NCBI RefSeq assembly: GCF_022458985.1
Contig: NC_061789.1
Location: forward strand, 17,206,357 to 17,270,356
DNA length: 64,000 nucleotides
From: Mugil cephalus
Taxonomy: Eukaryota > Chordata > Actinopteri > Mugiliformes > Mugilidae
Direction of reading: 5' to 3'
Shown: positions 2,697-64,000 of the stretch, piece after piece
How the letters are laid out: every line of letters starts with the position of its first letter
Position numbering within the stretch: position 1 is the first letter of the stretch
Position numbers and translations under genes: made by a program
The notes under the pieces: generated by a model
What the model saw: the letters and a program-made list of their open reading frames with translations, nothing else
Databases searched by the model: none
Told to the model about the DNA's origin: nothing

Positions 2697-3615
2697 TCGT
2701 GTTGGCAGCAAACATCAGAAACAAAAGTGTCTCAGCTCCATGCGTCCCCAGTAGGCCGCAGCTGTTGTCGGTATTCAAACCTAATGCAGGTGTCTGCGCT
2801 GTTTGCTTTGTGGAGCTGTCGTTATGTGCACATCCACCGTGTTTCCTCTGCGTGTAAGTCGGCTCTGAAAAACGCATGAAGACGTGCGCATTCATTAACC
2901 CTTCTCTTTAACAGTGCGATGATGGCTCGGCGACAGCAGCAGGCGTCACTGCTTACACGAGAGCATCACTCGGCTGTTTTAACAGAGTGATTGAGGTTTA
3001 GTAAAAGGAGAACAACACAAAAAGAACAAGCTTCGCAGCTGAGAAGAGCTCACTGAATAAAATGAAACGTAAACCAGATGTACACGTTTGCCCTTAAAGT
3101 TAGAATAATGTGTTTAACTATTACTATTCTCATGAAACAACTGTGACAGTGTGATTTATTTGTGTGAGATACAGTGTATATCTGCTCAAAACTTTACTGA
3201 TCAGTCTCTTCGTAACATATAACTGACACATATAAATAGGAATAAAAAGAGGAATGTGTCTGAAAACAAAATTACTCCAACTTTATGGGCAACAGTCTGC
3301 TTTGATTTCCTACTGTTACTGTTGTCTGCACAATTCAAAAGAAGCTGAAACAATGATCTGGATTATTAACTGCAACGAAACTTAAGGAAAGTTACAAAAA
3401 GTGTGAGACCATAATTATACAGTATGCTGAAATAATGAGAGTACAAGATCAATGATATTTATGTGTTGCTAGTTGGTAGCTGACGGCTAGACCTGCTAGC
3501 CGTTTATTTTTATTTCTTTTTTGTTCAGTTGGACTGGGCTCCCAAATGTGTTTTGCCCCGAAACTTGGCACAAGGGATGGTAACATCTCATACTGTGTTA
3601 TAATGAATGTGCTAT

Positions 3616-3685
3616 GCTAAGCTAAGCTAAGCTAAGCTAAAATAAGCTAAGCTAAACTAAGCTAAGCTAAGCTAAGCTAAGCTAA
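3616..3685. repeat. (GCTAA)n satellite
   Basis: Thirteen to fourteen tandem copies of the pentamer GCTAA, with two slightly altered units in the middle (AATAA and ACTAA). It is a simple pentanucleotide array outside any gene. Confidence 0.93.
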
Positions 3686-7840: not shown

Positions 7841-21427
<13,587 letters not shown>

Positions 21428-22605
21428 CGTCGCAGGACCTACAGGACCATGGGTGGGGTTTGACAGGGGGGGTTAGAGCGAGGGAAATAGCACTTACAAA
21501 AACCACAGATACCTGTATTAAGTCTTCAAATTATTTTCCTCTCTTTTCTTTTTTTTTTTACATTTTTGTTTGTGTTCCTTTCCCCGGGGTTCAGTGGGAC
21601 ATGATGCCTGGTGCTCTACATAGTATGTATTTTGGTAAGTTCTAGTTTTGCTGGATTCAGAGTTCAAATCAAGCCTCCTACGTTGCATGAGTAGCCAACA
21701 AGTCTCACGCTGTATTGCGGGGTGAAATACTGAAGTGCCTCATCTGAGCAAGCTTGATTTGACGTAACTATTATAGCTTATTCAGATAGGGTTTTGCGTA
21801 GACACTGTGGGATATCGGGCGTTTAATTAGGACAAAAACATATTCAGGCTTTTTATTGATTTCCGAGACATTTCTGAGTGAGATTAAAGCTACTAATACC
21901 TTACTATAAAAATTTAATGCCATCTATAATATACCATTCGATGACAATCTCTCATGGAGCCATTTTTGACACCATAGCTAATAGTTTGTCTTGGGATGGA
22001 GCAGCGAGCCCTTGTGGGGAACTAAAACACTATAAGAAAAATTTATAAAAAAAAAAGAAAAAAGGAAACAGCAACCCACCTAAGAGAGAACATACTGACG
22101 AGCATGGTGCTTTGAGATGTTAAGCTTTGAGATGATTCATATAAAGAGTGTAAAGGGTATATACTATTGTATGTATTTGTTGTATCGCAGCCTATAACAA
22201 TGCATTACCTATACAGAATGGCACATGTAAGTTGTTCAGAAATGCCATATTGTCAGTAGATAGCAGCTTTGCCGTTTACAGTACGCTCAGACTCATAACA
22301 CATTCCCAGCCACGGAGCTTTGGAAATGAGAATGCGAAGGCTTTAAGATATAGCACCTCTGGGTATGAGAGCTAACAGATCAAAAAAAATAAAATAAGGT
22401 GATGACGACAGAGTCCTAAACATCCAAACAAGTCCTCCCTCCTTCTGTCTTACTTCTGGCTGCTTATGTTACGGTCAAGCTGCCAATAGCTCGGTGCTAC
22501 AGAGTGTCTGACCCCGCATCTAATGAGAGAATTACAAAACTACAATCATCCTAAGTATATGACTTTCAGGGAACAGCTGCTCCCTCCGACCATGTGGAGA
22601 AGCGC

Positions 22606-26024: not shown

Positions 26025-36266
<10,242 letters not shown>

Positions 36267-39247
36267 GACTCTTTTAAAAGAGAACAACACTTTATGGCAA
36301 TCCAGTGCAACTTCACCTCACAGACATATGGACTAAGGGCTACTTTCATCATACAGTGTTCAAACAACTTCTACAACTACAATCAACACATATTATATCC
36401 TTATAAACATTTTTTTATGTAATAAGCTTAAACTACAATCCACTTTAATTGTCTTACCTTGTAATAGGGTATGCTACGTCACTTAGCCTCTCATGCAAAA
36501 ATTAAACTTCCCCATTCAATCTTTGAAAGAGTGCCCCCCTCTGTTGGCAAAACAAAATAGACATCTGATATAAAAAATAAATAAATAAATAAAAAGCCTT
36601 CCACAGTGGGGCTTTAAACTGCTCGCCGTGGGGTGCCTTTTATAAATCATGGGTGGCAACTGAGCAAATAGTGAACATGCGAACGGACAACGTGTGCATC
36701 AGTGAATACGGTCTACGGATTTAACAGCACGGGTCAAACACATTGCTCAGGAGTGGGCGTGCCTCTTCAGAAAAGCGGAGCAGAAAAGTGCGTAGTACAG
36801 TTTTTCTGTGTTGCATAATCGCCTTAATGAACATCAAGTTCAACGGTTGAGCTAAAACAGAATCAAAAATTACTACAACGGCAAATATGAGCAAGTGGAA
36901 ACAGCCACGGTGCGATTTTTCCCCCCCTCTTGGACTACGAGGCGTGCACACGTTTCAGCCTCAGCTATGAAGTGCGCTACGTCCTGTAGGTGCAGCACCG
37001 TGCCAACAGAGCTACACAGTACCCATTTAAATGTAGAACACTTTAAAGACGTGCGCACCAACCACCACAATGACGGCACGTTATTCTAGCGCACGCGTGT
37101 GCACGTGTAGATCTCCACATCCAGTGTCGCAGTTATCAAATACCTTTAAATCCACGTCTTGCGTCCTATTTGTTGCGACAACAGCCTGCAACGCGATCAA
37201 GTCCCTCTGTGTTTTTTTTGTTGTTGATTTTTTTTTTAAATAGTAGAGAGATCCGGAGCAATTTAAGGCAGTCTTTGCTATGGATCTGACGCAGATATCG
37301 TCTCCGTACGGCGAGGGGATCTCAGAGAAATCCCTACATTATCCATGGGCATGGTGCTGGAGGTTGTTGTTGTTGTAGCTTACAAATAGCTGCGCACTTG
37401 GCTCGGTTGAACCAACCCGAGCTGGAGGGTGACGTCTTTATTATGATCACAGCCTTTCGTAGCAGAGGAGGATTTATTACTATTCTGCGTCCTGGGAATA
37501 AAAAGTAGCGTGGAGCAGCCACGGCACAGCCATTTACACGCGCACACAGGAACTGATGCAACTGGCCGGAGTGCGAGATCGCCATCTAAATGCGTGAGGG
37601 CACAACACCATAGAGTTTTATAATAGCGCAAGGGGAAGCAGATAATCATAGCATCCTTAACGTAGCTATACTCTACTGGAGCGAGTCAGGATCGGATAGA
37701 AAATGGGATAAATAAAACAAACATCCTAAATAAACGTAGCATCCCAGGATCGGTGATTTGTATTTATTTTATTTTATTTATTATTTATTTTTCGCAAAAA
37801 GACCAATAAAATATCCGCAAAGCCTTGGGATACTACAGTCACTCTTGATTATTCTTAATATTAAAATAACGGTTTAACAGTTGAATAATCTCACATGAAT
37901 TATTAATAGTTAAAAAACAAGCCCCCAGTTTCTTAACATTCCATTGGACGACGGAGAACAGTTGAGTTGCTGTTCAGCACTCCTCCTCCAGGGTGAGCCC
38001 AACACATTACGTCCTCCCTTTTTTAAAGGGAGAGACAGAGGGGCTGTGGTGCTGTCACGTACTCCACGTGAAAAACAGAATTCATAGAAACGTAACTGAA
38101 CTAAAGAAAGAGAGAAACAACAACAACAAAAAAAAGAAAACTCGTGCAGATGTGCGTTTGAAAGAAGTTTGACGTAAAGCAGAATGGCACGAATCCGTGG
38201 ATAAATCGATTAACTGGTTATTTCAAACGTTTGAATAGATGAAAGTGCAAAATCTGACACGGGGGAGCTCCTAAACGTCCTTTTGCAAGGGGAAGGGACA
38301 AATGTGGTAAACAAGTCACATGTAAGGCGGTCGTATGGTCACCAGTTTAATAGAACACAATGTAAAAGGGGAAACGTAAACATCATTTGACCTCGTTGAA
38401 AAAATAACTGCCAATGTGGTTGCCAAGTATAAATATGAAGAACTATTTTTATTTTTATTTTTTTTGGCATTGCGTAGTGGTCATTGCGGAAGATATTTCG
38501 CTACCATTAGAACCGCTGCACTGATGTCGTTTGTACAGACATGCAGGCACATGTGCAACATCTCTGCTCTTGTATCAGAAACCGCAGATTCGTGAGGCAT
38601 CTGGCCCATGTGTCCGTATTTAAATATTTACAATATATTAAAATGTATACAACATGTACAGCTATGCAAATGCTTCGTATTTCCTTGGAGGGCATTCCGT
38701 GAACATTTTCAACGGTTTAGTTCATTGAATAATTGATTTCGGGTCACGGAAAAAAGAAGTTATCCTTCCCTGGCACACTAGGTGGCACCGTTCAGCTACT
38801 TTTTTAATGCAATAACACACTTTTTTAATGCAATAACACAGTCCTCAGGTTCTAAGTAACTGATAATGCCACACTGTGAATATACTCCACTACAGTTAAA
38901 TGAATTATTACTGGCAAACGTTTCTTTGTTGAAAGTAATCAAAAAGTTAATATTTTTTACTATTGTGCAAGCTATAGGATCTTTTCATAAACGTCACTGC
39001 CACATTTGTGTGTATGTTGCATTTAGTGATATCTGAAGAAGTGTGTTTTCAAATCATGCAATTTTTGAGTTTGTCAGAATAATTGAAATTCTTAATCGCC
39101 ACCTTTGGAGATTGTTGCTTTTCACCAGGCAGAAAGGCTTTTAACAATTAAAAATAGCTAATGCTGCTGGACAAATTTAGTGCAATATTTTTAGTTTCTT
39201 TAAAAAAAACAAAAAAAACAACTCAGTTTCAAGTCGTAACCCCGTGG
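36267..39247. other. EZH1 5' region and EZH1-RAMP2 intergenic spacer
   Basis: No coding exon is seen. The EZH1 non-coding first exon and promoter should lie here on the minus strand, but its splice donor cannot be chosen with confidence. The interval 36880-37680 is richer in CpG (GCGCACGCGTGTGCACGTG near 37090). It holds an AAAT array near 36577-36594, T- and A-rich tracts, and a 21-bp tandem duplication at 38798-38839. Confidence 0.5.
38798..38839. repeat. 21-bp perfect tandem duplication
   Basis: The unit ACTTTTTTAATGCAATAACAC occurs twice, head to tail, without a mismatch. Confidence 0.9.
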
Positions 39248-41454: not shown

Positions 41455-44400
41455 TATAGCTATATATATAGCCTGTTTAAATGTCCCTGACCTGAATAAA
41501 TTAAGACTTCCTTGAAGCAGCAGCAGACAAAGGGAGGATGCACAGATGTGTTCACTCCCCAAAGCTTACTCCTTGTTATTTCCTTTACCTCCTCTACTTT
41601 CCAGAGTTCGCGGGAAAGCATTGAATCCAATTGAACTGTTTAATATTTCTGAGACTTCAAATCTTTGTTAAGGCCTCATTCCAGTGTTCACACCCTATTC
41701 TGTCTCGCTCTCTCGGTGCAGGATGTGCCACAGCGCTTTGCCTGGTCAATGAAAAGGTAACGGAGCAACCGGCCACGGTGACAGGTATGTTGATATCGAT
41801 GGAAAAAAACTCATCTTCGCCTCTGAATTCCTTTAACTCAGCTGACATCCTTCCTCTATAGGTGACGCCTCAACACTGACAACGACGCCTAGTAAGTGAA
41901 GAACTTTTCTCTGTCACAAATTATAGATAAATAGTGTCATTCTAATTAAACAAAATAAATAAAAAATGGGCAGGTTTTAGTCTAATTGTACTTTAATGAT
42001 TTAACAGAAATACACCAATGCTGCTCAGATAAATATATTTTACAGTTCCAACTTGGTATTATATAAATGTGTTCACTGGGGATTGTTTTGAATAAGTTGC
42101 TTAAACTCATTTGCTTGGCCTGGAACTGAAAATCCCAGAAAACAGAGCTCAGAGATCATGTTTTCTGGCAATATATCTCTTTGTGTGTATTATTATGAGA
42201 ATCCAAGATAAACTCCTGGGGAGGTCTCTACCAGTGTGGGGTGAACAGCAGTAGACATGAGGCCCATAATGGTTTGGGGTTAAAGGTTAACTGAAACCTC
42301 ATTATGAGCGGCCCCCACCTGGCGCAACTTCCTGAATTTGTTCGTCATTCACCCCATGCAACGTCTGTGATCAACGCATGAACTCCGGGTTGTGAAACAA
42401 CTGGAACTTTGGAGCAGCGCCCCTTTCACTGTTCCTCATCCTGTGCCTTCTTTTTCTTTTTTTTTTTTCTCTTTCCCCGACTGTCCCCCCCCCTCCTTCC
42501 TCTGCCAACTCCCCCCAACTCTGAGCTCCTCCTCTGCTGAAAAGACACATTTCCTGATGTCATTCCTAAATCAAAACGCTGCTCTGCAAACAGATGTTGT
42601 GAGAGGCCCAACATGTGGATTCAGTGACATAAATGAACAAGTTGGCTGTGAGAAAACCCGAACAGTAGATTTCTTTTTCATTCAATCAATGAAACCGCCT
42701 TCCTCGCACTGTTTTTCCAAAGTGGGGAAAGGTGACGGTGAGAAACGACCTCACATTTATAGCACGTTCATCAGCTCCGCAAGACATAAAAGGCAAGTTT
42801 CCCGCACATAACCTGATAGAAATCTCTTAGATAGAAATTCTATGTTTTCTTTAAGTGTGCACAGTTGCCTTTTCAAAACAGCTGGTCAGGTCTCACTAAC
42901 AACTTGTTCCACGTTTGATCAAATTAACCTAAATTTGAAATCACGGCTGTCTGCGCAGCACACCCTGCAGAGTCATGATTATATCCAACCCCAAAACGCT
43001 AAGCCCTAAATGTTTACTTATGTTTCCTATTTGGCAGAGGCAGCCCAAAAGGCAAATAAATCACATGCTGTGAGCTGGCCAGGCCTTCGACTGTGAGAAA
43101 CTGAGACTAAAAAGCAGAACAAGAGTTAAAGAGTAAAGGGTTTTCAGATGTGAGTCCAGCCCCAGCTTGGGTGTGCTCCCTTTTATTTGGGAGAATGGAG
43201 AGGACAATCTTAGTTGCCTCCACCCCTTTAAGAAAGGGAGAAAATCTTCAAGAAACGTGTGCTGGAGAGGGGAAGAGCTGTTGCCAAGGCGCGGGGCCAT
43301 CAGACAGATCTTCGAAGAACATCTGGTAACCGCGGGTAACATTGTTTGGACATCTGGTAACCGAAGATTACACTGCGTCTCCTCCATCCTGTCGGGTTTC
43401 CTGTTATGCCTCGCTGTACACAGACTAAGAAGTTCAGATTTATTATACATGGTCATCAGCTGGGGACATCGCACCTTTATTCCTTTTTTCTGACATGAAG
43501 GGAGCACTTGGTTTCATTGGGGTATTCCTCTCCTTTCTCTCGGGTGAGTGTGTGGTCTCCCTTCTAACAGCTGCAAATGTCTGCCACAGACAGTGCTGGA
43601 AATGTGAAAGGAGGCAGAATTTCTCACTGGATTCAAATGTGCTAGGGACGCATGTGTTCTTGAATGGACTGAATTACAGCTCTGCTCACGGTGTAAGCCG
43701 ACTGAATTTGCGTAGATCAATATTTGATGTGGATTGTTTTTAATCTAAAATGTATTTGCTTCCCCTTTAGAAATCATGGCAGGCTCTCACATCCCCTTTG
43801 GTAGGTAACATGCCTTTAAAAACATATGGATGCTTACATCACATGTCATACTCTGAAGAGATCACCTTCCACAACTGAATAGTTGTCATTTTCTAATCGC
43901 TCCATTTCTTTTATTGTCTCTTTCTCCCCTGCTGTTTTTTTTTCTTCCAACTCCGATCCATGCAGCTTGTGGAAAGTCTGAAATATGTAGAAACTATTGT
44001 GAAATCTGTCAAACTTATTTTAATGGACCAACAATGGAATGCCTCTCGTTGATCTTCGAACATCTATGCCTGCGCGCTTTTGAGAAGGATATGGAGTCCT
44101 TGAACAGCACTGACTGGTGCATTTGGGGCAATGTGAACAGGTAAATACCGATTTTTACATTCACACAATTGTTTTCACTATTACAAAAACGGAATTTGCC
44201 CTTTTCTGGACCAGCTAACACACTCTCCCTGTGTCCAGACTATATAGCAACTTAAGCATTTGCACAGAGGAAATATCTGACTGTCTCTGTATCCCGTGGC
44301 CCAACCCGTTGGTGGAAAAGACCTTTGTGGACATTCATACCAGGTTTTTCAAGGAATGCCCCACAGAGGATCTAAGTGATCCCCCACCTGCCATCATCTT

Positions 44401-44488
44401 TGCCCTGGTGATCACTCCCATCTGCTTGATCCCCGTCATGGTTAGCCTGGTGGTGCTCAAGACAAAAAACGGGGACGGCAGCTCCTGA
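40842..44488 (+). CDS. RAMP2: Receptor activity-modifying protein 2, distal-start form (5 exons)
   Basis: Single-pass accessory subunit that carries the calcitonin receptor-like receptor to the cell surface and shapes it as an adrenomedullin receptor. Exons: 40842-40893, 41722-41784, 41862-41891, 43966-44140, 44239-44488. All junctions are GT-AG; phases 1,1,1,2 join, giving 189 aa. Hydrophobic leader about 5-25, then a Thr-rich linker, a Cys-rich ectodomain with CRNYCEICQTYF, DWCIWGNVNR and CIPWPNPLVEK, and N-glycosylation sequons NST and NLS. The transmembrane helix is about 157-180 (PPAIIFALVITPICLIP), with a nine-residue tail. PICLIP after DPP is the RAMP2 type, not RAMP1/3. Length agrees with human RAMP2 (175). 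It lies next to EZH1, as in mammals. Whether this 5' end or the one at 43495 is the main form is open. Confidence 0.88.
40944..40982. repeat. (GATA)n microsatellite
   Basis: About nine tandem GATA units starting 51 bases after the first RAMP2 exon (distal form). Confidence 0.93.
41406..41452. repeat. (TA)n microsatellite
   Basis: About 23 TA units in RAMP2 intron 1 (distal form). Confidence 0.93.
43495..44488 (+). CDS. RAMP2: RAMP2, proximal-start form (alternative 5' end)
   Basis: A second complete 5' end for the same gene. Exon 43495-43543 starts MKGALGFIGVFLSFLSG, a short hydrophobic leader, and ends G|GTGAGT in phase 1. Exon 43771-43800 is 30 bp, CCCCTTTAG|AA to TTTG|GTAGGT, again phase 1. 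It then joins the shared exons 43966-44140 and 44239-44488, giving 167 aa. The start has G at -3. The 30-bp second exon has the same length and phase as the 41862 exon of the distal form. The two forms would share the receptor-binding ectodomain and differ only in signal peptide and mature N-terminus. Use of both is inferred. Confidence 0.7.
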
Positions 44489-45620
44489 TTGAATCTCCGC
44501 TCCGCTCGTCACTAAAAAATGACCTACGCTCTCCTTTCCCTCACGACCTGAGGACCGCTTGTTTATACATTGACTGCCGCCGCGCTTCCGTTACAGACCT
44601 CGCAGAGGGCTGAATCTTTCTGACAAGTTTACCCACTCATCGCGATTCAGAGGAACATTGAAGGGACCAACCACAGGAGGACCTTATGGAAAGACCACTC
44701 CAATTTAAATCAACTGTTTTGTGGCTTTATTGTTGTCACTCTCCCTCGGCTAACCTCCGCCCATCGGTATCTCCTCATCACTTTGAGAATAAGGGCTGTG
44801 ATAGACATTCAGTTTCCCACCACCTGAGTGGAGATCAGGTTAAACTACTAGTCACATCCAGTTTGCACATACATATTCAGAAAACAGAACTGACAAGACA
44901 TGGTAATATTTTCTTACTGAATTGCTTAACATTTCATTTGCAAAGTTATTAATTTTTTATTTTTTTTTCTGCTGCTCAAGTTGGCTTAGAGTTGCAAATG
45001 AGAAAACTGGATAAAGGTGCTCATGTATGATCTGATGACAGGGCTCCTATATGAGTATACAGAGGATAGGAATATAAGTAGAGTCCGATGCATGGATCTG
45101 GTTATAGTGTGTGGAAGGTCATAGGTTACATATGGGACACAATGGATGGGTGCGCCCAAAGGGGAACATCTCCTTCTGTTTTCTATTTTTAAACAGCGGG
45201 AAATCTTTCAGCACCTTCCCACCTCCACGGACTAACTAACGATCCCTCGTGGTCGTGTGAAGATGACAAGCTGATGGAAAGTTTGTCCCCAGACTTAAAC
45301 TGTCTGTGCGACATAGTGATATACACTGAGCAATGACAAAAAGATAAAAGTGCTATCTTTTGCGCAGAACATGATACTGTGGTTATGTATTTTTAAGCTT
45401 TGTATGACGATAAAGCCATGTGACGTGCTTTCTGATCCTGATGATTGCATATTTATATACTTTATTGTATTTCTTTTACTGTCAACAGTTGGTGGACTTG
45501 CTATACAGTCTGAGAGAATACATCCTGTCTGCTCTCACTCTATGTACTGTATACATTTTTACGTATTTCTTTATATTTTAAAAACCATTAAATCTATAGT
45601 TGAATCGTGGGCTGTTGCTT
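44489..45620 (+). other. RAMP2: RAMP2 3' untranslated region
   Basis: About 1.1 kb of non-coding sequence ending near ATTAAA at 45587-45592. A second ATTAAA at 45767-45772 could give a longer form. An AT-rich block at 44949-44968 lies within it. The end point is inferred from the signals. Confidence 0.5.
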
Positions 45621-52182: not shown

Positions 52183-52246
52183 TTTATTTCATTCATCAGA
52201 ATACAGTGTCAAGGCAAATACAGACTTGCGCTCTGTGTATTTTATT
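52183..52246 (-). terminator. Candidate polyadenylation signals for actinoporin-like copy A
   Basis: TTTATT at 52183-52188 and 52241-52246 read AATAAA on the minus strand, 320-385 bases after the stop. The choice between them is open. Confidence 0.4.
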
Positions 52247-52567: not shown

Positions 52568-53215
52568 CTAGTATGCCTGCTGGCCCATGGATGTGAAAAG
52601 CTTATCCCACACCTCCACCTTCATGATGGCGTTGCCCATTGGACACATGGTGGCCTTGATATCAAGGGAGTTGCCCACGTAATTGATTCCCGACCCGACG
52701 GCTTCCTCCCTGACAAACCCGTGCTCCTGCTGATTCTTCTCGTAGTACATTTCTTTGTACAAAGCCTTATCACAGTTGCGGCCCCTTTGGTAGATGCCCA
52801 CTGCAAACCAGTTCTTGTACAAGTTGTAGTCCCAGGGAACTGAGAACATGATGGCCAGCGTCTCAGCGTGGTCGTTGCGCGACCTCTCGAAGAGGTCATA
52901 GGTCAGTACGCCAACGCTGCCGGTTGCTTTGGCACTTGATTTGGTGAAAGTGCAAACTTCTGTCTTTAGGGGGCGTACTGTAGGTTGGGGTGGGTTGTAT
53001 GTCTCCCCATTCTCAATGTACACCCTAACCAGAAACAGAAACACACGTAAAAAATGTAAAATGTTTGATAGAGGCCTGGGAATGTTTGACCCCAGCACAG
53101 TCTGGGCTTACCTGGGGTTGATGAGGCAGTAGCCGTTGGTGACGTTGGTGATTTCAATGGTCACACTTCTCCTGCTGTTCACGTCGGCTGCCACAGCTTC
53201 GGCTGACTCTGTCAT
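52568..53215 (-). CDS. Actinoporin-like protein, copy A (2 exons, 186 aa)
   Basis: Member of the actinoporin-like family, a beta-sandwich fold known from sea-anemone pore-forming proteins and also found in fishes, where the role is unclear. Exons: 53215-53112 and 53024-52568, joined in phase 2 across CCCCAG|GTAAG and GGTTAG|G. No signal peptide: it starts MTESAEAVAADV. Residues 95-104 (FSVPWDYNLY) hold the Ser-Val-Pro and Tyr of the phosphocholine pocket; W107 follows in the exposed aromatic loop. Y124, Y128 and Y129 complete the pocket. The tryptophan at position 112 of the anemone proteins is Leu103 here. The N-terminal helix of the anemone proteins is short here. Copy B lies upstream on the same strand. 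Function in fish is not inferred beyond membrane or lipid binding. Confidence 0.9.
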
Positions 53216-54590
53216 GTTGCAGTGGTCGTGAGATCTGCCTGTAAAGCAAAGGACATGTAGACGTCAGCCTGCTTTCTATAGGCGCGGGGGAATAATGACA
53301 GTATCACTTATGATGGTACAGAATACGCTCCCGACCTCTGCTCTGCTGATATATTCTACTGGCATTACGTTGACCTTCAAAGACACACATCGACTGGCGC
53401 TGAGTGTGAACGATGCATTTCACAGGCTAATGAGATTTCAAAACATTTGTGAACAATCAGAGAATGGCTGCAGCCGCGTGAGAGAGACTACCGCTTCAAT
53501 TACAGCCCTAAGTAGCATGCGGTAATGAAGTTAAAGTGAAAACACTGAAGAAAACGATCACCCCCCTCTCATCATTAGATACATGTATCAAACTAATTCC
53601 TCATCAGACGTCTATATTAGTCAAACTGCTTTTCTTTCTCACGACTGTCTTTTTACCTAGAAGTTTGAAGCAACTCACCTGCTCAGAAACTTCTGTTCGT
53701 GTGCAAGTCTCCGAATGGAAGAAGTTACCTGAAAGGGAGGTGGTGGTACAATTTTTTTTTTTTTTTTAAACAAGGATGCGGGCTATCATTCCGTAAACCC
53801 TCCCTTTTGAAACACAACCTCGGTCAGAAAGGACACACCTTTCTTTCTAGACATATTTATCTGTAAGCCTGGCCCACCCAAACATGAGACAAGAACAAAC
53901 AGCGCTCGGTTTTCCATTCTGGCATGACAAAACCACACCCTATCGATGGCAGAGCTGAATAGTTTTCCTATTGGATCTCAACCTCTTAGGCTGCTCTTCA
54001 CTCAGCACATTCATTTTCTCCTACACAATTGTGGGTTGACTAACAGACATGGTTTTGGGAAGCTCAATCCTGTGACATTGTGCAACGGGGGAAAAAAGAA
54101 AAAAAATGCACACCAAACAAGCTGAGGCAGACTTCTAAAGAGCCCCTTTAATCTTATTCTGCCTTTTGTTGGACCTTTGCATTCCAAATGCCTCTGAAGA
54201 ACAATGTTGTTATCATGCCGATTAAAAAAACATCTATGCAGATATTCCATCTGTTGCTGCTCATTAGAACTGGCTGGATCCAGCTAAGAGATTAAAAAAT
54301 GATTACTGTTAATCAGTAATACTGAAAGCATACTGAGTGAAAACATAGTCAACACAAAATAACACAAGCGCTGGGTCTGAATGTTTTATTACCATAATCA
54401 AAGAAAAGGGAGTGTACAATGCGCATGAGCCCAAGGAATAAGCTAATGGGGAATCAATGAGCTGGCTGTCAGATATTGATATCTTTCAGCAGACACAAAA
54501 TGCAGATGACAGCAAAATCAGTCTTCCTCTCCTGAATGTTTTTTTTTTTTTTTTTTTCCAGGGGGACAACAGTAGTCAAATTAAATTAAG

Positions 54591-54596
54591 TTTATT
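54591..54596 (-). terminator. Polyadenylation signal of actinoporin-like copy B
   Basis: TTTATT on the plus strand (AATAAA on the minus), 49 bases after the stop codon, implying a very short 3' UTR. Confidence 0.6.
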
Positions 54597-54644
54597 CATT
54601 CTGCAAGAACAAGTACAAAAAAAGGAACCCCAGTAGACAGCACA

Positions 54645-56044
54645 CTAATGACCCATTTTATCGTAGAGCTCCACTTTCACAATGGCTTTGCCAACCGTAG
54701 ACATTGTGGCCCTCAAATCGACCGATCTCGCTTTGTGTTCAAGCCCGGAGCCGGTCGAGTCAGCGCGGGATGAGTTGCTGAGATCCTTCCCGTCGTACAG
54801 CTGGTCGTACAGATGTTTGTCGCAGGCACGGGACTGCTCGACCACGCCCACGGCCAGGCGGTTGTTGTACAAGTTACGGTCAAAGGGCACGGAAAACATG
54901 ATGGCCATGCGCTCGGAGCACACCCTGCTCTGCATGTGGAACAAGTCGTAGGTCAGCAGGCCGACGGCGCCCGTGGCGGTGTTGTCGTCCTTGGTGAAGG
55001 AACACACTTCAGTCTTGCTGGTGCGAACCGTGGGTTGGGGCGGGTGGAAACAGAAGCCACTTGTCATGTGCACCCTATACAAGACAACAACAGATCCAAT
55101 TTTTTTTTTACCATCAATACTGATCAGTTGAAAACTTTTATATCCCACACTTTTGATGAACACTTTTGTGAGTTTTGTGGAGGCTGCCAGTGCACTTTGT
55201 GACTGTCGGGCTTTCCAGGGTGAAACATCTTATGCTGATGGATGGAGTGTGACTGGAGGTACTACTGTGGACTTCCAAGCAACAGCGAGTGTACCTGCGT
55301 GTGATGTGCAATGAGGCAGTGTGTGTCACCGCGTGATGGATAGGTGGATGTTTTCGGCGAAGTAATGTCACACATGAAAACCGCCCATCCAAAATATGAG
55401 CTGTCTTGCCACAGTTAGATGAATGTCGAAGCATGGCGCAAATTCCAATGGACGCGAATATTTTTATTATGTTTATTTCATTCTTTAGTTTTATTAACTT
55501 TCGTTTTTTGGTCAGACGTGGGAAAAGTGACACTATTGTGACAGTATTGTTAAGCAACATAGTAGGTAGCTATGGCTAATAATAACTATGCACTGGGAAT
55601 ATCATTGAGCTTTTCTTCTGCAGTGTAACCACACTGAATTAACATTACTTTTTATGCAGTCTACTAAGAATAAAAATGGCTGAGACCTGATTTAAAGATA
55701 TGTTTTCTACATTGTCATGGTAAACGCTAGGCAGACATACAGTAATGTTAGGGGTTTAATAAACACAGGTTAAATGGTGTGGAGGTAAGCAGCAGTATCA
55801 CACACCGTTTTATTACACGTTTCCTCCGTTCATCACAGCATCAGAAGTCATTCATTTGAACGTCATACAGTAAGCATTAAATAATATGTTCATTAAACCA
55901 GTTTAAGTGTTAAAACCATCATGTTCAGTCACACACTTACTTGGGGTTGATGAGGCAGTAGCTGCCGCTGACATTGGTGATTTCTATAGTGCAGTTTCTG
56001 TTGGTGGTGAGGGTGGCTGACACGGCTTCTGCAGTTTCAGGCAT
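54645..56044 (-). CDS. Actinoporin-like protein, copy B (2 exons, 177 aa)
   Basis: Tandem paralogue of copy A. Exons: 56044-55941 and 55074-54645. The first exon is 104 bp, as in copy A, with the intron in the same place and phase (CCCCAA|GTAAG, GTATAG|G). It starts MPETAEAVSATL with no signal peptide. Shared blocks include EITNV, YCLINP, PPQPTVR, KTEVC, LLTYDLF and MFSVP. At the lipid-contact positions it differs from copy A: Arg instead of Tyr at 101, Arg instead of Trp at 107, Asp instead of Tyr at 129. Y104, Y124 and Y128 are kept. The C-terminus is nine residues shorter. The frame is intact with a normal stop, so it is not a plain pseudogene, but its membrane-binding surface looks altered. 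Confidence 0.9.
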
Positions 56045-59000
56045 CTTGACTGCAGGAGAAACAAGACAGAAAGCTCACACCTGCCAACGGGTCGCTATTT
56101 AGCAGCGTATTGTCCGTTCCTTTCATATACAGTTACAGATAGTGTTTAGGTTCCAAGTCCCACTGGGTCAAAGGAAAAACACCTTCCAGTTATTTTTTTT
56201 CCCAGACAATAACAAAGACACAGCTGAGATGTAATTTCCCAATAAGTAAGCAGAATCATATTCACCTTTCAGAGTTAAACACCCGCGTTGTGCCAGACAG
56301 CAGCGTCAAGTTCTTTTCTTCGGGTCCTGCAGAGAGGTGGAGAGTCTCCCTTGTGTGATTACACCTCCACAGTGCCTGTTCCAACACAAGCACAGGCGTG
56401 TCCTCGTGATATGTAAGAACACCATCCATTATGGGAAAACTGATATTAGAAAGAAGCCCTTTGCAATAACAACGATTCTTATTTTGTGAGTTATTTAACT
56501 CTTGTATCAATAATCAACAGTTTATATATATATATATATGTATATGTCTGTTTAGATCATGCATGAGTGGCATTAATTCACTAAATGGAGCCTTGATGTG
56601 GAAAATTGTTGCAAATCAATATCAGATCATACTCTGCAGTTAAAAGTTCATTTCATGTATATTCTCCAGTTATTTTATTACTTAAATTATTTTTTAAATT
56701 AAATCCAGTGAATCCAGTTAACGGCCCAGTGTCATGTTGTGTCTTGATTAGACTGAGACTGAACCTTAGTTTTTGCTCAAGTAGATACTTGTTATTTCTG
56801 CGGGCGATGACAGGCGACACATTTCTGTGGCAACCCCCTCTCATCCGTTACAAATTTCAACACACTGACGTTCATATCTCAGTAAATCTTGCGCCCGCTG
56901 GAGCACGCTGGAGTCGAGGAGGAGACACTCCCTTCTTCCGTGCTAACTTGCTCAAACAACACAGAGCGGTACAGTGCAGTGTTGTATTTATCCGTGGGGT
57001 TACAAGGCTCGAGGATCTTCCCAATTAAGAAGGTTTTGCAGTGTGTTCATTATTCCTCCTAGCAGCTAAAGCTATACTATGGCAGCTGTTCTGTTGCGTT
57101 TATCAAATACCAGGAACTTGACTGAAATCCTTCAACTCCACAGCTCGAAGTCAGCAGATGGCACCAGACATGCATTTGCAAAAAAAAAAAAATCATTTGC
57201 ACTACACAGACGTTCACAGTTAATGTTTGCTATCTGATGATTAGCCAGTGACCACTGCAGAGAATATCTAACAAATATTATACATTCAGCACCCCGTCAT
57301 TGTGCCCCTTAATAACAGCATTCAGGCATATTGGACAAAGTCACAGTATATGTCAGTTGTATGTCAGTCACTTCAATAACTCGAACGGGAAAGGGAAAAT
57401 AGAGTTGATATAAATACCAGTAACACTTTCTGAAACAAAAATCTCACTTCCTCATACCCTAAAATGATAAATGATATGACAGAGAATAAACCCTGCCATG
57501 ACTTTTCCTCTGCTGCCACCCTCGGGTCAAAATTATTGTTTAGGTGAGTTGTAAGTACTCAAATTATTATTATTATTTTTATTATTATAATTATTATTAT
57601 TTGGCCCCACAATTAATATATAGTATTGAAATTACACTTTTAAGGGACTAAAAGTGGGCTTGCTGTCTCGACATAAGATCACCTCCACAGCCGAAATTGC
57701 TCCTTATTTTATTAAACAGGTGTAGTAAATTTAATCTCACTGGGGTTATCATTCTGAGAACAGCTCGTGAGAGGCAATTAAAAAGGTGACAAAAGGACAA
57801 AATATCAGTAATCTCCATTCATGGCTTTCCGAGCCTTTTAGAGTAGTATGATGACAGAGATAAATGTACACTAGAAACGAAAGCATATTTAATTATAGCA
57901 GGTGCAGTCACCTCATGTCACTCCAGTTGCTGTTTTAGATACCTGTCCTAGCACCATCTCTTTCAGTCTGTCTTATATATAAATACACAATCAACATCCT
58001 GCTTATGGTATATGGCTTTCTTTAAAATCTGGTGATGAATACACAGATGTACGTATACCTCGCACAGAAGTGTGTGGCAAGGTTACAACATTAAGCGAAC
58101 GCTACCACATGCAAAAATAACTCTGTCTCTTGTTCAGATAGAACAGATTAGTGTTTCACCCTACTCCTTATTTAACTATTTTAAGGGGCTAACTCCATAG
58201 CTAGCTAATTCTAAAGAAAGGGGAGAAGGTACGTGATGTGTTGACGGACGATAGAAGGCGGGAGCGCGATGGTGACACCTTGTGGGCAGGTGTGGAACAA
58301 GCATTGCTTCAGAAGAGCAAAAAATAAATCAGTTATTAGAATTGGAGGAGCAGGGAACAGCTGCTGACATGACAGCAACAGTATATCACTCAGAAATGAT
58401 TTTGCTAGGAAGTAATAATGTGTGTAGAAATATGAAACTGTCACAGGCTCTCTAATCTGGTTTGTGATATTTGTCTTCAGATCAGGTGCAATTGCCTGCA
58501 ATTTTCAGGACTGATTTCCATCACAAAGAGGAACCCTCCATGAAAAACAGAAGCAGGACGGTTCTGCGCACTCATTTGTATCCGGGATGTTAAATGTACC
58601 TATGCTGAAAATAAGGTGGATTTTATTGCATAAGTATTTAAATACCCAGAGGTAATTTGCACTCACACTGATTTGTAGCAGGAGATTAATTGTCAGTTTC
58701 ACTAATTTATTTTAAGTACTCAATTTACATGCTAATAATGCGGCCCCGTGGCTTTTATTAGATGTGAGGCGTTGCAAACGCACGCACAAACACAGATAGC
58801 ACAAAAACATCACATGTCAATTTTGCACAGATCTACAGAAATGCAGCTGTTATCACGATATCAGATATTCACTGTTTTTACGAGCATAAATTGTTGCTTT
58901 TTAGAGCACATATAATTTGGCAGTTATTGATCGTAGGTGTGTCTAATGTGACAGACTGTTAAGAAGATCCTCCCAGCTCTTACTCTAGGCAGCCAGGCCT

Positions 59001-60049
59001 CGTCATCGCTGCTTGATGTTTTGTTTTGCTTTGACCTCTTCCCAGAATCACTCTTTCACTTCCAAATGTGATAGCAGCATTATTGAGGCCCGGGGTTCAG
59101 AGATGGCCACTTAGGACGTGTGAAAACAAAAATCATTGTAAATTGCTCTTCCATCACCGGCTCTGACAGATGTGCCAGACAGATTTCAGATTGATTCAAC
59201 TTTGTAGATGTGACCATAGGTATAAAACTTCAAGGTATTCAAACCGTCAGAGCACGGATGCTTAAAATGTTAGTTCCCTTAATTACCATACATTTCATAA
59301 AAGACATGGTTTTTAGTAGTAAATTAAAAGTAACAGTAGTTTTGCTTCAGTTAAACACTAATGACTTATGACTTGTGGGAACATTCACTTTCCATTCCAT
59401 TTTCCAGCACTGCCTAAGTAAACTACTTTGCAGCTCTAATGATGTGTAACATCACTGACATTTCTCCATCTCGAGGGAACTATTTGGATCCGTCTTAATC
59501 TCTTTATCTCTGCTGTTATACCTGATGACAACTGTTTGACTGATGCACTGCTCATCGCCAATTTAAAGAAATTTAAACATACAAGTCATTTTATAATGAC
59601 CTATATTCCATACCCACCCATCCATCATATGTGGTATATTCCGTTTATTATTTTACTTCTTTAATGAATCACTCTCTCCAGCTCACCAGCTGTCTATATC
59701 CAACTCTTCTTTCTTATGTTTATGCATCATTTTCAGTGCAGGGACATGGAAAGCATATCATGAATCTGCTTGAGATCTGATGTGTGTGGAACCATTTACA
59801 CATCATTTGCATAAAGTGTTTTTTTTTTTTTTTTTACCAGAACACAAACTGTAGAGGACATACAAGATTTTCTGAGAACGCAAATTCTAAACCAACAAAT
59901 CCATGTAAACATCATATCATGTATGACCAAATGGAAAGGAAAATTCACCGGGGTTTGTTTGTTTCAGGAACACCATATTAAATTACATTTAAGTCTAAGG
60001 TCGACTCGTTGAATCAGTCACAATTAGAGTGTATAATATCAAGTTACGC

Positions 60050-60083
<34 letters not shown>

Positions 60084-61500
60084 GTTTTCCATTAACTGTC
60101 ATTGCAAATGAGCAGATATGAGGGACTGTATGGAAACACTTGACGGATGTAATGGCACACTATGATGAAACAGCATGAAGCAAAGGAACACTTGTCTTCC
60201 AACAGTTCTAATTTTCAAAGGTTGCATTAATGCTATTGGCACATCCTTTAATTAAAGCTTACTCCGATATTATAGTGTGTGACAGTCCTATAGGGTCAGC
60301 TCCCATTTTCCACAATATGCCAGTTTTATCAGCATTCTCCAATCTGTTCAGTTAAATATTTTACAGGCACAGTGTAAATGAAACCCTTTTTGATATATTC
60401 AGTTTATTTAATTTAAGGAGCTTCCTTGCAAGCGTAGGTAAAATCTGATAAAGATGCTTTGTTGTTGTTTTTAGTGTATGGATGCGCGACTGCATGTTCT
60501 GCTTTATTTGTGGTTATTAAAGCTCCATGGGTTTTAGGTCTGTGGTAACTTCTTATTCTGCTTCCTTTAGACCTGTTGTCTTCATAAGTGGACGCCTTTA
60601 TCTGCCATCTAGTGGTAGTGAAGGGTCAATACGCTCGTCGGTGTAAGAAAATGACAGCGGGCATTTCAGCGAAATCTTTATTTAATTTGTGTTTTTTATG
60701 GTTGAAACTTGTCTATTTACGCTTATTAACGCCTCTAGTTCAATTTTGAAAATTTAACAAATTCCACCAGCAGCAAAAAGCTACAGCGTCGCTAATTAGG
60801 AAGTGCCTGTTTGAGGTTGTTTTGTGTAAACACGTCCTGCCCAAAGATGATGCTCAGTTTTTATACTTCTTAGCTCCTTGGAGGAATTAACAGCACATAA
60901 CAAATAAAAGCTCGGGTCTCAGGAGCTTAAGCTTTGCATACACCACTGGTGACCATTGCATATATCACTGATGATTTTAATGATTGGCCGTAGGGTGTGA
61001 ATGGTCGTCTGTCTCTCTGTGTTAGCCCTGTACCCTGTGTCTCGCCCAATGACAGCTGAAGTCTGTAGTTACAGAAAACACAACGTTCTCACTGGAGCGC
61101 CAATTACGTCTTGATTGTTGCAGGTTATGTAGAATGGGCTAACCCACAGTTACAGTAAATCACCCATTACACTCTGAAATAAAAAGATCAAATCAATTGT
61201 CTAATAACATTACACATTTTACAGCTGCATTGACTTTTAATGATGGGATTACAGGATACTTTGAGTAAACACCAGATGGCAATTTCAGCTTGTCTAATGA
61301 AATCTTGCACGCTTAAACACAATATGAATTATGTGGTTGGAGAGACCAGTGCTGGGGCTTTTATGATGTCCGATCAAAAGCAGCAATCTAAAATTCCAGA
61401 CAATCAGTTGAGCCATAGCACAGATCCGATGGCTGGATATAAATACCCCCCCTTTCTATGTATCATATTATTCACTGCATAAACTCTTACAATTTCATCA
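56045..61500. other. Upstream flank of actinoporin-like copy B and distal gene-poor DNA
   Basis: The first few hundred bases presumably hold the copy B promoter or a 5' non-coding exon; no clear TATA box is placed. The rest is AT-rich and has no recognisable gene. It carries small AT/ATT arrays (56523-56540, 57566-57601), T-runs (59819-59836) and an AAT array at 60050-60082. Confidence 0.55.
60050..60082. repeat. (AAT)n microsatellite
   Basis: Eleven uninterrupted AAT units. Confidence 0.92.
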
Positions 61501-61549
61501 GCTTTTGAGAATAGGAGATCCTGATTAATCCCTTCAGTCATCAAAATGG

Positions 61550-62800
61550 TCTTCAAAGGTAAAGGTTCTCAAACGCGGGGTAATGGGTGGGGGAAGTGGA
61601 GGGGGATTATGCAAACTTCACAGTGATTAATTTTGGCCTGAGATGTATCTGCACTGACGGTAGCCGGGAGAGGAGCATATTGATTGATTGCTGCGGCGGG
61701 CGCGAGGTTCTGCACATTTACTTTTTGATGAATAGGCTGTCAGGCCCACGAACAACCAAATATGGCCCTGTAAATGAATGTTTAAGCGATTATGGTATAA
61801 GTGTAAATATTACACATCCATTAAGGAGGATTACATTTGGTGCCACTCTGGGAGGGGAGGAAATAAAAGGGACAAGCCCGCTGAATATCCCAGAGGTGGT
61901 GCGTGGAGAAATGTGGCTTTAATCTGCATGTGTAATGTTTTAGAATTCTAAATAGGAAAGTCCTTGACATTAATCTGTGCGTGCCTGCGTGCGGCGAGCG
62001 TGTATCTTTATGTAGGCTGGTGTGTGTGTGTTTTCAAGAGGCCAAGACTGAAGATGGGGGCTTTAAGTTGACAGAGCATGCCAGTGCATCCGCCCGCTCA
62101 AATTACCACGAGAAAAAAAAGAAAAGAAAAAGAAAACGTATCCGGGGTGTTGCACTGGAGGTGAGAACGGGAATAAATGTCTGCTTCAAAGATGATTTGT
62201 GCTCAGCGTGGATTAATTCCCCCACCTAAGAAAAATCAATAGCACGGCGTGCCATAGGAATACATTTGTGTCACCTCTTGGGGGGACAAAGAAGTGAAAA
62301 CACAGCTCAGAAGCAGTTCAGACAATACACATCAGAATGACGAAAAACCCAAACAACAACCGAACTGGTTAGCAGGCTCATTCTGGAGAGCTGCCAGTAA
62401 TTAAGGGATTTCTCTCTTTGTCTCTTTCCCTGAATCTCTCTCCATCTCGATGTGAATTAAATGCGCTTCCAAAATAGCTCTCGTGCAATCTTTAACGTTT
62501 GAAACTTAAACGCCTCATCATTCAAAATATGCAAATATATTCCCCACATTCATCATTCATTGTTTAAATAAGCACTTTCCATCTCATTTCTTGGCAGTCA
62601 AATCCCGGCGTTCGACCCTTGTATCTGCAGCCTTTCACTCTATTTCGCTTGATTTATTATTATTAGAGAGCGCACTCCATGTATTTAAACTCCAGATGCA
62701 TGTAAACACAAGGCCCTCAAGGGCATGCTGCACGCATGGAAAACATACACATCACGAGCAACACAACGAGAGAGACTGATTTCAAACACAGAAATAAATC
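61550..62800. other. Candidate conserved non-coding block
   Basis: A mostly repeat-free 1.2-kb stretch dense in homeobox-type cores (TAAT/ATTA), TTATGCAAA (POU-type), TGATTGATTG (PBX/MEIS-like), GTAAATATTACA and AATATGCAAATATA. A 111-codon open frame at 61587-61922 has no family resemblance, but its low stop density agrees with constrained sequence. Only cross-species alignment could show conservation. Confidence 0.3.
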
Positions 62801-64000
62801 CCTCTGGGAGAAGCCCAGCATTTTTTTTTTTTTTTTTTTTCCTCAACAGCGTGTCAAAAGACTGAAAACAAATCTGTTGTCCTTGTGGCAGGCTGCTGTG
62901 TAACAAACTGTTTTTGCATGAGAATATTTAGTTTTTGGTCCTGGGAAACATCTTAACTTTTGAACTTTGCGTCCAGGTTGACTTTCAAAGTACTTTTAGG
63001 AAAATATCTACATCATGCAAACATGCTGTTTCACAGCGTTTGCCTTCCATTTCCATATCCCCAGACGGAGCGTCCTCATCCTCGCATTGACTAAATGATA
63101 AACGCCAGGGCCTGTGTTTGCGCTGATCTTCTGAAGACAAGACAGACAGGAGATCAATAAGCTTCCCATTTTCTACCCACCCAACCCCCCCCCCACAATT
63201 TCGCCCTCTTCCCCACTCTTTCCCCAAACCGTGGCTCAGCCATTGCATCCTCTCTGACGGTCCGTTTCTCTGCCTTTCACTCACACTCCCACAAAAACCG
63301 CGCGCCGCCCTTCTCCCACCTTCCTCCTGCTCCGTCCTGCTTTATAAGAAATATAATCCCATTGATCCAAAACCCGATGGGAAGCGTTGATCTGTAAACA
63401 GACGCGTCCTCAATAAGAGCCGTCCAGTCCTCCGGGGAGGAGATGGAGGGACGGTGGGCGTGTGGTGTTCTAGGTGTTCTCCCGGGACTGGAGAAGTGCG
63501 CCTGTGAAAAGGGCTGCTGCGAGAGCGGAGAAAGTGGTGGTGTGTCCTGGCATCATTTATCAGGTTTATTGCTTTCTTGTCTTGTTGCCGACTGCCGTCG
63601 GCCCTCACCTGGCCCTCCTGCTCCCGGTAAACCTTGCTTCGATCAAGCTATGTTCTACTCAAGCAATTAAAAGTCTGCAGCTCGGGGTGAATGGATGGAA
63701 AGGTGTGACATTTTGCTTTTGACTGACGATGAATCCAGAGTGACGGCACGGACAGGCGCATCCAGGCGCAGATATGGATTTATCTTTCCCCCTTATGTTC
63801 CAACACTTTCCCCGCTATCCCTCCTCCAGCCTCTCCTCCGGCCTTTCCTGCCATGTTATTCTGCCTATTCCTGAGGCGACGGGCCCAGCCGTGAGGGAGT
63901 GTGCCCCGCTCCCCACCTCATCCTAAATCATTACTTGACAGTTTAAAAGGGCACAAAGCAACAGATGGCTTTTCTCTGTGTTTCCATGGTTATTCCCTTT
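62800..64000. other. Distal end of window, no gene identified
   Basis: Contains a T-run (62820-62841), a C-run (63185-63194) and a CpG-richer stretch near 63290-63660 with a TATA-like TTTATAAG (63341-63348). That could be a promoter of a gene outside the window, but no coding exon with splice sites is convincing. Confidence 0.4.

What the first reader, a model, noticed from the sequence alone, without database searches (positions are those of the whole stretch)
52568..56044. Tandem pair of actinoporin-like genes beside the CNTNAP1-EZH1-RAMP2 block
Seen: two intact two-exon frames with the same exon 1 length (104 bp), same intron position and phase, and shared family motifs. Known: actinoporins are best known as sea-anemone pore-forming proteins, and related proteins of unclear role exist in fishes. 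Inference: a local duplication in the fish line. The lack of a signal peptide argues for a cytosolic or non-classically secreted protein.
Basis: partly seen in the sequence, partly recalled or inferred. Interest (0 to 1): 0.72.

Follow-up and report, generated by a model that had tools for sequence, protein, structure and literature searches.

The report
Fish actinoporin pair, one face recharged
A genome whose listed closest protein matches are fish carries, side by side, two intact relatives of a sea-anemone pore-forming toxin that have a shorter start than the toxin; bowfin holds the same two types, and one of the two has charged residues at three places where the other and the anemone toxin have aromatic ones, so the pair has likely split into a membrane detector and a partner with another target.

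Summary
Two intact genes with two coding exons lie on the minus strand (A 52568-53215, B 54645-56044), with 104-base first coding exons and the same intron position and phase. Both score above Pfam's cut-off for PF06369. They are not a recent local copy: A belongs with fish 'actinoporin-like protein' (best listed match 89%), B with fish 'bryoporin-like' (86%). Both types share a contig in 25 of 26 teleosts compared and in bowfin; several teleosts hold a second pair elsewhere, as a whole-genome duplication would leave. Neither has a conserved signal peptide, and about 14 residues of the actinoporin N-terminus are missing. A's group keeps three aromatic residues near the lipid pocket (all three in 108 of 121 relatives). 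In B's group none of 128 has all three and 102 have none; the window's B has Arg, Arg, Asp there, while inner pocket residues are kept. Likely mechanism (inferred): A docks on phosphocholine-lipid membranes without piercing them; B was repurposed for another target. Fish actinoporin-like proteins are known since 2006. I found no description of the linked pair or of B's changed face in my searches of an open-access library.

The parts
53112..53215 (-). gene A, coding exon 1 (34 codons plus 2 bases)
   Evidence: ATG at 53215, donor GTAAG after 53112; start aligned in relatives
53025..53111 (-). gene A intron, 87 bases
   Evidence: GT...AG; relatives run across this point without insertion
52568..53024 (-). 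gene A, coding exon 2 to stop; most of the actinoporin-like domain; Tyr, Trp, Tyr at equinatoxin positions 110, 116, 138
53216..53238 (-). gene A, untranslated bases between a splice acceptor (53239-53240) and the ATG; probable end of a non-coding 5' exon junction
   Evidence: sequence; inferred
55941..56044 (-). gene B, coding exon 1 (34 codons plus 2 bases)
55075..55940 (-). gene B intron, 866 bases
   Evidence: GT...AG
54645..55074 (-). gene B, coding exon 2 to stop; Arg, Arg, Asp at equinatoxin positions 110, 116, 138
56045..56049 (-). gene B, 5 untranslated bases between a splice acceptor (56050-56051) and the ATG
   Evidence: sequence; inferred
56266..56420 (-). gene B, probable non-coding 5' exon (its donor follows 56266; its far end is not defined). 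In the frame of the ATG it holds a stop, so it adds no N-terminus here; its DNA, read in other frames, resembles the annotated N-terminal extension of a clownfish relative (P0145)
   Evidence: inferred
52241..52246 (-). AATAAA downstream of gene A
   Evidence: motif match only
54591..54596 (-). AATAAA downstream of gene B
   Evidence: motif match only

Best explanation
These are two intact, neighbouring actinoporin-like genes, of which A likely works as a soluble, non-piercing sensor that docks on phosphocholine-lipid membranes, while B likely lost that docking and was repurposed for a different target. Shown: intact genes; no conserved signal peptide; an N-terminus about 14 residues shorter than that of sticholysin-1; the actinoporin fold predicted for a close relative of each; inner pocket residues kept in both groups; three aromatic residues kept in A's group and replaced in B's. 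Inferred: the proteins stay in the cytosol or leave only from damaged cells; A meets phosphocholine lipids where a membrane has been breached and outer-leaflet lipid faces the cytosol; B binds an anionic lipid, a headgroup or a protein (perhaps A) by a face with basic residues at two positions and an acidic one at the third.
For: PF06369 hits; matches to solved actinoporins and bryoporin; predicted fold of P0003 and P0123 matched to equinatoxin II and bryoporin; 17 residues before the first strand and a 6-7-residue helix; residue 18 of P0003 aligns with residue 32 of sticholysin-1. Pocket residues P107, D109, Y113, Y137 in at least 93 of 94 A and at least 126 of 128 B1. Aromatic at 110, 116, 138 together: 108 of 121 A-type, 0 of 128 B1, 12 of 50 B2 plus bowfin B; none aromatic: 0 of 121, 102 of 128, 1 of 50. 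Zebrafish member reported membrane-binding and not cytolytic (passage of PMC8778704). apnl named among salmon skin epithelial markers (figure legend in PMC10627282). Non-toxic equinatoxin probes expressed in the cytosol bind sphingomyelin there (abstract and passages of PMC11266560) and TECPR1 senses sphingomyelin on breached vesicles (passages of PMC10476172): analogies.
Against: The same passage says the zebrafish protein's binding was not specific for sphingomyelin, and I could not tell whether that protein is of type A or B. No binding, location or damage data exist here. Position 112 is Leu in the window's A and B, not Trp. B1 changes faster than A (71.8% against 79.0% mean identity over 25 species), which also fits relaxed constraint. 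In A, Y138 is Asn in 11 of 94 and in bowfin A, and bowfin A has Arg at 116.
Confidence: 0.42

Rival explanations
1. Both proteins are surface-defence proteins, released without a signal peptide from skin and gill cells, that coat microbes or parasites by their lipids or glycans, like the fungal fruit-body lectins of a related fold.
For: A's model also matches fungal lectins, weakly (ranks 25, 27-32); apnl is named among salmon skin epithelial markers; one review passage says a role in target cell recognition was proposed for fish (PMC9526159).
Against: No conserved signal peptide or extension; no proteomic evidence of mucus location was found in my searches.
Confidence: 0.22
2. A or B is the lipid-recognising half of a two-part pore: it marks a membrane and recruits a perforin-type partner, as aegerolysins do (OlyA with PlyB).
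For: Both models match OlyA in the OlyA/PlyB pore, weakly (9do6_A, E 1.5e-4, 6.0e-4), and B's model matches Cry34Ab1.
Against: Fold matches are weak and no partner gene was recognised beside the pair in the parts of the window examined.
Confidence: 0.08
3. B is a decaying copy of A under relaxed constraint, with no new function.
For: B1 changes faster than A and its face residues vary (His 66, Arg 31, Tyr 19 of 128 at position 110).
Against: Pocket residues are kept in at least 122 of 128 at seven positions (V87, S105, P107, D109, Y113, Y133, Y137); B1 is intact in the window and on the same contig as A in 25 of 26 teleosts; replacements are charged rather than random (99, 99 and 118 of 128 are D, E, K, R or H).
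Confidence: 0.13
4. One or both are active pore-forming toxins used in defence.
For: Membership of PF06369 and the kept pocket.
Against: Short N-terminus, no export signal, zebrafish member not cytolytic.
Confidence: 0.04
5. A and B are a recent tandem duplicate within this fish's lineage.
For: They lie 1.4 kb apart, in the same orientation, with the same exon plan.
Against: Each is far closer to its own type in other fish (best 89% and 86%) than to the other (49.6%); tree.
Confidence: 0.01

Closest known systems
Fish actinoporin-like protein (zebrafish ALP of Gutierrez-Aguirre and others 2006; gene symbol apnl)
   Same: A's listed matches are mostly fish proteins of this name or named after anemone toxins, 89% at best. 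Reported membrane binding without lysis (passage of PMC8778704).
   Different: The 2006 paper is not held; whether its protein is A or B is not settled. That apnl is type A is inferred from names.
Sea-anemone actinoporins (equinatoxin II, sticholysins, fragaceatoxin C)
   Same: Pfam family, predicted fold, inner pocket residues; A also has the aromatic rim.
   Different: Shorter N-terminus, no signal peptide, conserved cysteines, no RGD letters in either protein.
Bryoporin (moss)
   Same: Best solved match of B by sequence and fold; fish B proteins bear its name.
   Different: Bryoporin is haemolytic and binds sphingomyelin (PMC9526159 passages); B lacks the aromatic rim and the long N-terminus. 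The shared name is from automatic annotation, not orthology tested here.
TECPR1 and non-toxic equinatoxin probes (cytosolic sphingomyelin sensors)
   Same: What A would work like: a cytosolic protein that meets exposed sphingomyelin (passages of PMC10476172; PMC11266560).
   Different: TECPR1 uses an unrelated DysF domain and has a known effector; A has neither shown. The resemblance is an analogy.

Membership tests
Actinoporin-like proteins (Pfam PF06369) | Score above the curated Pfam cut-off (25 bits) | tested here: met
   A 71.4 bits, B 47.5 bits, exon 2 alone
Actinoporin-like proteins (Pfam PF06369) | Beta-sandwich fold of actinoporins | tested here: met
   Predicted models of relatives P0003 and P0123, not of the window's own proteins; Foldseek TM 0.72 to equinatoxin II and 0.80 to bryoporin
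Pore-forming actinoporin (toxin proper) | N-terminal region long enough to form the membrane-crossing helix | tested here: not met
   17 residues before the first strand in P0003, helix 5-10; residue 18 aligns with residue 32 of sticholysin-1. The window's A and B have the same start lengths
Pore-forming actinoporin (toxin proper) | Signal peptide and secretion | tested here: not met
   Conserved start without a hydrophobic stretch; best 15-residue mean hydropathy 0.67-1.33 in four relatives; in-frame stop upstream of B's ATG
Pore-forming actinoporin (toxin proper) | No cysteine | tested here: not met
   Cysteine at P0003 positions 30, 59, 119 conserved in both groups; definition from passage of PMC5198562
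Pore-forming actinoporin (toxin proper) | Phosphocholine site V87, S105, P107, Y133, Y137, Y138 and Y113, D109 (S54 not mapped) | tested here: inconclusive
   Window A has all eight; window B has seven, with Asp at 138. Site from PMC5198562
Pore-forming actinoporin (toxin proper) | Sphingomyelin-dependent lysis | not testable with these tools
   Needs purified protein; zebrafish member reported non-cytolytic
Fish ALP type A orthologue group | Falls in the A clade | tested here: met
   Window A in the A clade, support 1.0 for that clade
Fish ALP type B1 orthologue group | Falls in the B1 clade | tested here: met
   Window B in B1, support 0.656 for B1 as a whole
Cytosolic membrane-damage sensor (works like) | Recruitment to breached membranes and a link to an effector | not testable with these tools
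   Analogy only

The most novel reading that the evidence does not exclude
Ray-finned fish carry a natural, built-in counterpart of the laboratory sphingomyelin probe: A is a cytosolic guard that recognises phosphocholine lipids on breached membranes of surface cells, and B, kept beside it since before the teleosts and recharged on its membrane face afterwards, is its partner or regulator with a new anionic or protein target. A toxin fold has become a vertebrate damage-sensing pair.
Probability: 0.12. Interest if true: 0.8.

Novelty: new variant of a known kind. Interest (0 to 1): 0.48.

Why it matters
In print the role of fish actinoporin-like proteins was given as presumed membrane binding (passage of PMC5198562) or proposed target-cell recognition (passage of PMC9526159). 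The finding gives that question a handle: two linked types with a clear difference at three positions, present in many fish including laboratory species. If A senses breached membranes, a venom fold has become an internal alarm in vertebrates; if B has a new target, the pair is a clean case of a lipid-binding surface turned into another surface after a genome duplication.

Tried and rejected
Recent tandem duplicate: rejected by tree and identities. Pore-forming toxin: disfavoured by the short N-terminus and the zebrafish report. Hidden signal peptide upstream: 18 of 299 sequences have an extension before the conserved start; they resemble each other only within salmonids (P0200, P0223) and carps (P0229, P0293), and that of a clownfish relative (P0145) resembles the window's upstream DNA read in other frames, where the frame of the ATG holds a stop. 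An earlier look at 15 longer or exon-1-less models gave the same picture. Third copy in the window: none. Further copies in this genome: the genome search did not complete, so a second pair in this species is untested. Expression searches by toxin-style names were swamped by unrelated fish papers and gave nothing. Non-ray-finned vertebrates: the protein searches list the best 120 hits only, so sharks and land vertebrates stay open.

Limits: searches found 316, 323 and 460 proteins, 120 listed each; 297 distinct proteins plus the window's two exon-2 products make the 299 used for residue counts. Representatives stand for clusters at 90% identity. The tree used 114 sequences picked by hand, mostly with a named species and a contig length, and species showing both types were favoured, so 25 of 26 is not a random sample. 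Groups for the residue counts were assigned by nearest tree member; 15 A sequences of unclear copy are 'A?'. The counts include the window's two sequences.
Full report
What is there. On the minus strand lie two intact genes, B (56044 to 54645) upstream of A (53215 to 52568), in the same orientation, 1.4 kb between B's stop and A's start. Each has a 104-base first coding exon that ends two bases into a codon, an intron with GT and AG ends (866 bases in B, 87 in A), and a second exon to the stop. Reading on into A's intron meets a stop at once. A splice acceptor lies 23 bases (A) and 5 bases (B) before the ATG, so a non-coding 5' exon is likely for both; for B a matching donor follows 56266 (inferred). 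By arithmetic the proteins have 186 and 177 residues, lengths common among the listed fish relatives.

Family. The exon-2 product of A scores 71.4 bits and that of B 47.5 bits against Pfam PF06369, cut-off 25; exon-1 products alone score nothing. Against solved structures A's best match is equinatoxin II (E 2.3e-13) and B's is moss bryoporin (E 1.9e-9). AlphaFold2 models of one close relative of each, P0003 (89% to A) and P0123 (86% to B), have mean pLDDT 82.1 and 84.1. Foldseek's best matches are equinatoxin II (E 6.6e-12, TM 0.72) and bryoporin (E 4.6e-12, TM 0.80); the lipid-binding protein Nakanori, aegerolysins, fungal lectins, Cry34Ab1 and a bacterial haemolysin follow further down. The window's own proteins were not modelled.

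Two old types. A's exon 2 finds fish proteins mostly named 'actinoporin-like protein' or after anemone toxins (316 hits, 120 listed). B's finds a different set, mostly 'bryoporin-like' (323 hits, 120 listed). In a FastTree of 114 hand-picked sequences over 177 columns, rooted at the midpoint, A and B are the deepest split (support 1.0 for the A clade) and the window's A and B fall in their own groups. Bowfin (Amia ocellicauda) has one of each, P0102 and P0285. Its B stands outside all teleost B in the tree (support 0.936 for teleost B), which splits into B1 (this locus; 0.656) and B2 (0.911). Against a tidy picture, the branching inside A is poorly resolved and bowfin's A falls within teleost A (support 0.763). 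Within one species A and B1 are 42-57% identical over exon 2 (25 species).

Linkage. The search listings give the length of the longest contig for each protein; equal lengths in one species are taken to mean the same contig. In the tree set, 25 of 26 species with an A of the main group and a B1, both with lengths, have equal lengths; Atlantic salmon is the exception. Species showing both types were favoured when I picked the set. Menidia menidia, not in the tree, also differs (16946090 against 20710405). Bowfin's A and B have equal lengths. B2 shares a contig length with an A in seven species: Chanos, Clupea, Lampris, Mastacembelus, Polymixia, Synaphobranchus and Megalops. Polymixia has both pairs, on two contigs, which fits the doubling of an already linked pair in the teleost genome duplication. 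Megalops has A, B1 and B2 on one 74-Mb contig, which does not fit simply. Consecutive locus tags suggest that A and a B are direct neighbours in Zoarces, Muraenolepis, Lucifuga, Dallia (B1) and Synaphobranchus (B2). The pair therefore predates the teleosts (inferred). What flanks the pair in other fish was not seen.

Expression. No transcript data for this species were available. Of 15 relatives of 176-186 residues hand-picked from contigs of 902-2127 bases with source label lgn, 14 run from the conserved start straight across the intron position, so they look like spliced transcripts; one (P0076) has an unrelated start. In the Atlantic salmon skin atlas apnl is one of three epithelial markers named in a figure legend (PMC10627282; passages only).

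Why not a toxin. In P0003 the first strand starts at residue 17 or 18 and the predicted N-terminal helix covers residues 5-10 (5-11 in P0123). Residue 18 of P0003 aligns with residue 32 of sticholysin-1. In actinoporins that N-terminal region elongates and crosses the membrane to build the pore (passage of PMC9526159). There is no strongly hydrophobic start. Eighteen of 299 sequences carry an extension before the conserved start; these look like translated 5' leader and are alike only within close relatives. Cysteines at three places are conserved in both groups and two more in B, whereas actinoporins lack cysteine (passage of PMC5198562). PMC8778704 reports that a zebrafish member had no cytolytic activity and bound membranes without sphingomyelin specificity (passage); the original paper is not held.

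The difference between A and B. Positions were numbered by the HMMER alignment of P0003 to equinatoxin II, gap-free from 98 to 141. All 299 sequences were sorted by nearest tree member: A 94, A of unclear copy 15, A2 11, B1 128, B2 49, bowfin one each. Inner pocket residues are kept in A and B1: P107 in 94 of 94 and 128 of 128; D109 93 of 94 and 127 of 128; Y113 93 of 94 and 126 of 128; Y137 94 of 94 and 128 of 128; S105 90 of 94 and 126 of 128. Y133 is Tyr in 63 of 94 A (31 Phe) and 122 of 128 B1. At three positions the groups part. Position 110: aromatic in 121 of 121 A-type sequences and 21 of 128 B1. Position 116: 119 of 121 against 12 of 128. Position 138: 109 of 121 against 0 of 128. All three aromatic: 108 of 121 A-type, 0 of 128 B1, 12 of 50 B2 with bowfin B. 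None aromatic: 0 of 121, 102 of 128, 1 of 50. In B1 the commonest residues are His or Arg at 110, Arg or Lys at 116, Asp or Glu at 138; the window's B is Arg, Arg, Asp and its A is Tyr, Trp, Tyr. Bowfin B is Tyr, Trp, Tyr; Megalops B1 is Tyr, Trp, Asn; Dallia and salmon B1 are Tyr, Trp, Gln and Tyr, Trp, Lys; the commonest B1 triad is His, Arg, Asp (46 of 128). So the aromatic state looks ancestral and the charged one reached stepwise within B1 (inferred). Against this, bowfin A has Arg at 116 and Asn at 138. Y138 belongs to the phosphocholine site in print (PMC5198562); that positions 110 and 116 face the membrane is recalled.

Mechanism. A keeps the pocket and the aromatic rim and lacks the piercing part and an export signal, so it looks like a natural non-lytic lipid-binding domain. 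Non-toxic equinatoxin probes expressed in the cytosol report sphingomyelin on the cytosolic leaflet (abstract and passages of PMC11266560), and TECPR1 senses sphingomyelin exposed on breached vesicles (passages of PMC10476172). By analogy A would guard against membrane breach in surface epithelium. This is inference, and the zebrafish result against sphingomyelin specificity weakens its narrow form. B keeps the pocket but has charges on the rim; it would bind an anionic lipid, a headgroup or a protein, possibly A. Faster change in B1 (mean identity 71.8% against 79.0% for A over the same 25 species; A higher in 95.7% of 300 species pairs) fits repurposing and also relaxed constraint.

Novelty. 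Fish actinoporin-like proteins are known. In the held open-access library I searched 'actinoporin-like' with 'fish' (36 papers, 20 listed), 'actinoporin' with 'zebrafish' and 'vertebrate' (24 papers), 'actinoporin-like' with 'teleost' and 'gene duplication' (1), 'bryoporin-like' (0), 'apnl' with 'zebrafish' (2), 'actinoporin' with 'skin mucus' and 'fish' (4) and 'actinoporin' with 'teleost' and 'paralog' (2). In the listings, and in passages read from nine papers, I saw no description of the linked pair or of B's changed face. Subscription journals are mostly outside that library, so this is weak evidence of absence.

Noticed in passing
window 12700-21500 (+), 26200-36300 (-), 43900-44500 (+): Neighbour genes: F5/F8 type C and laminin G exons (CNTNAP1-like), preSET CXC and SET exons (EZH1-like), and a RAMP gene (101.5 bits).
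   Followed up: partly
Megalops cyprinoides, P0035, P0219, P0245: A, B1 and B2 all on one 74-Mb contig, which does not fit B1 and B2 as simple whole-genome-duplication copies unless chromosomes fused.
   Followed up: no
groups A and B, P0003 positions 18, 30, 59, 87, 119: Cysteines conserved in proteins without a signal peptide: three shared by both groups, two more in B only.
   Followed up: no
window 3611-3685 and 38798-38840: A 15-copy GCTAA tandem repeat and a perfect 21-base repeat in two copies.
   Followed up: no
window 57000-64000: No gene recognised; two of its reading frames gave no Pfam hit.
   Followed up: partly
public fish protein records: Many fish proteins bear automatic names of anemone toxins (DELTA-stichotoxin, sagatoxin, actitoxin) or bryoporin although the two modelled ones lack the long N-terminus; the names mislead.
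   Followed up: no
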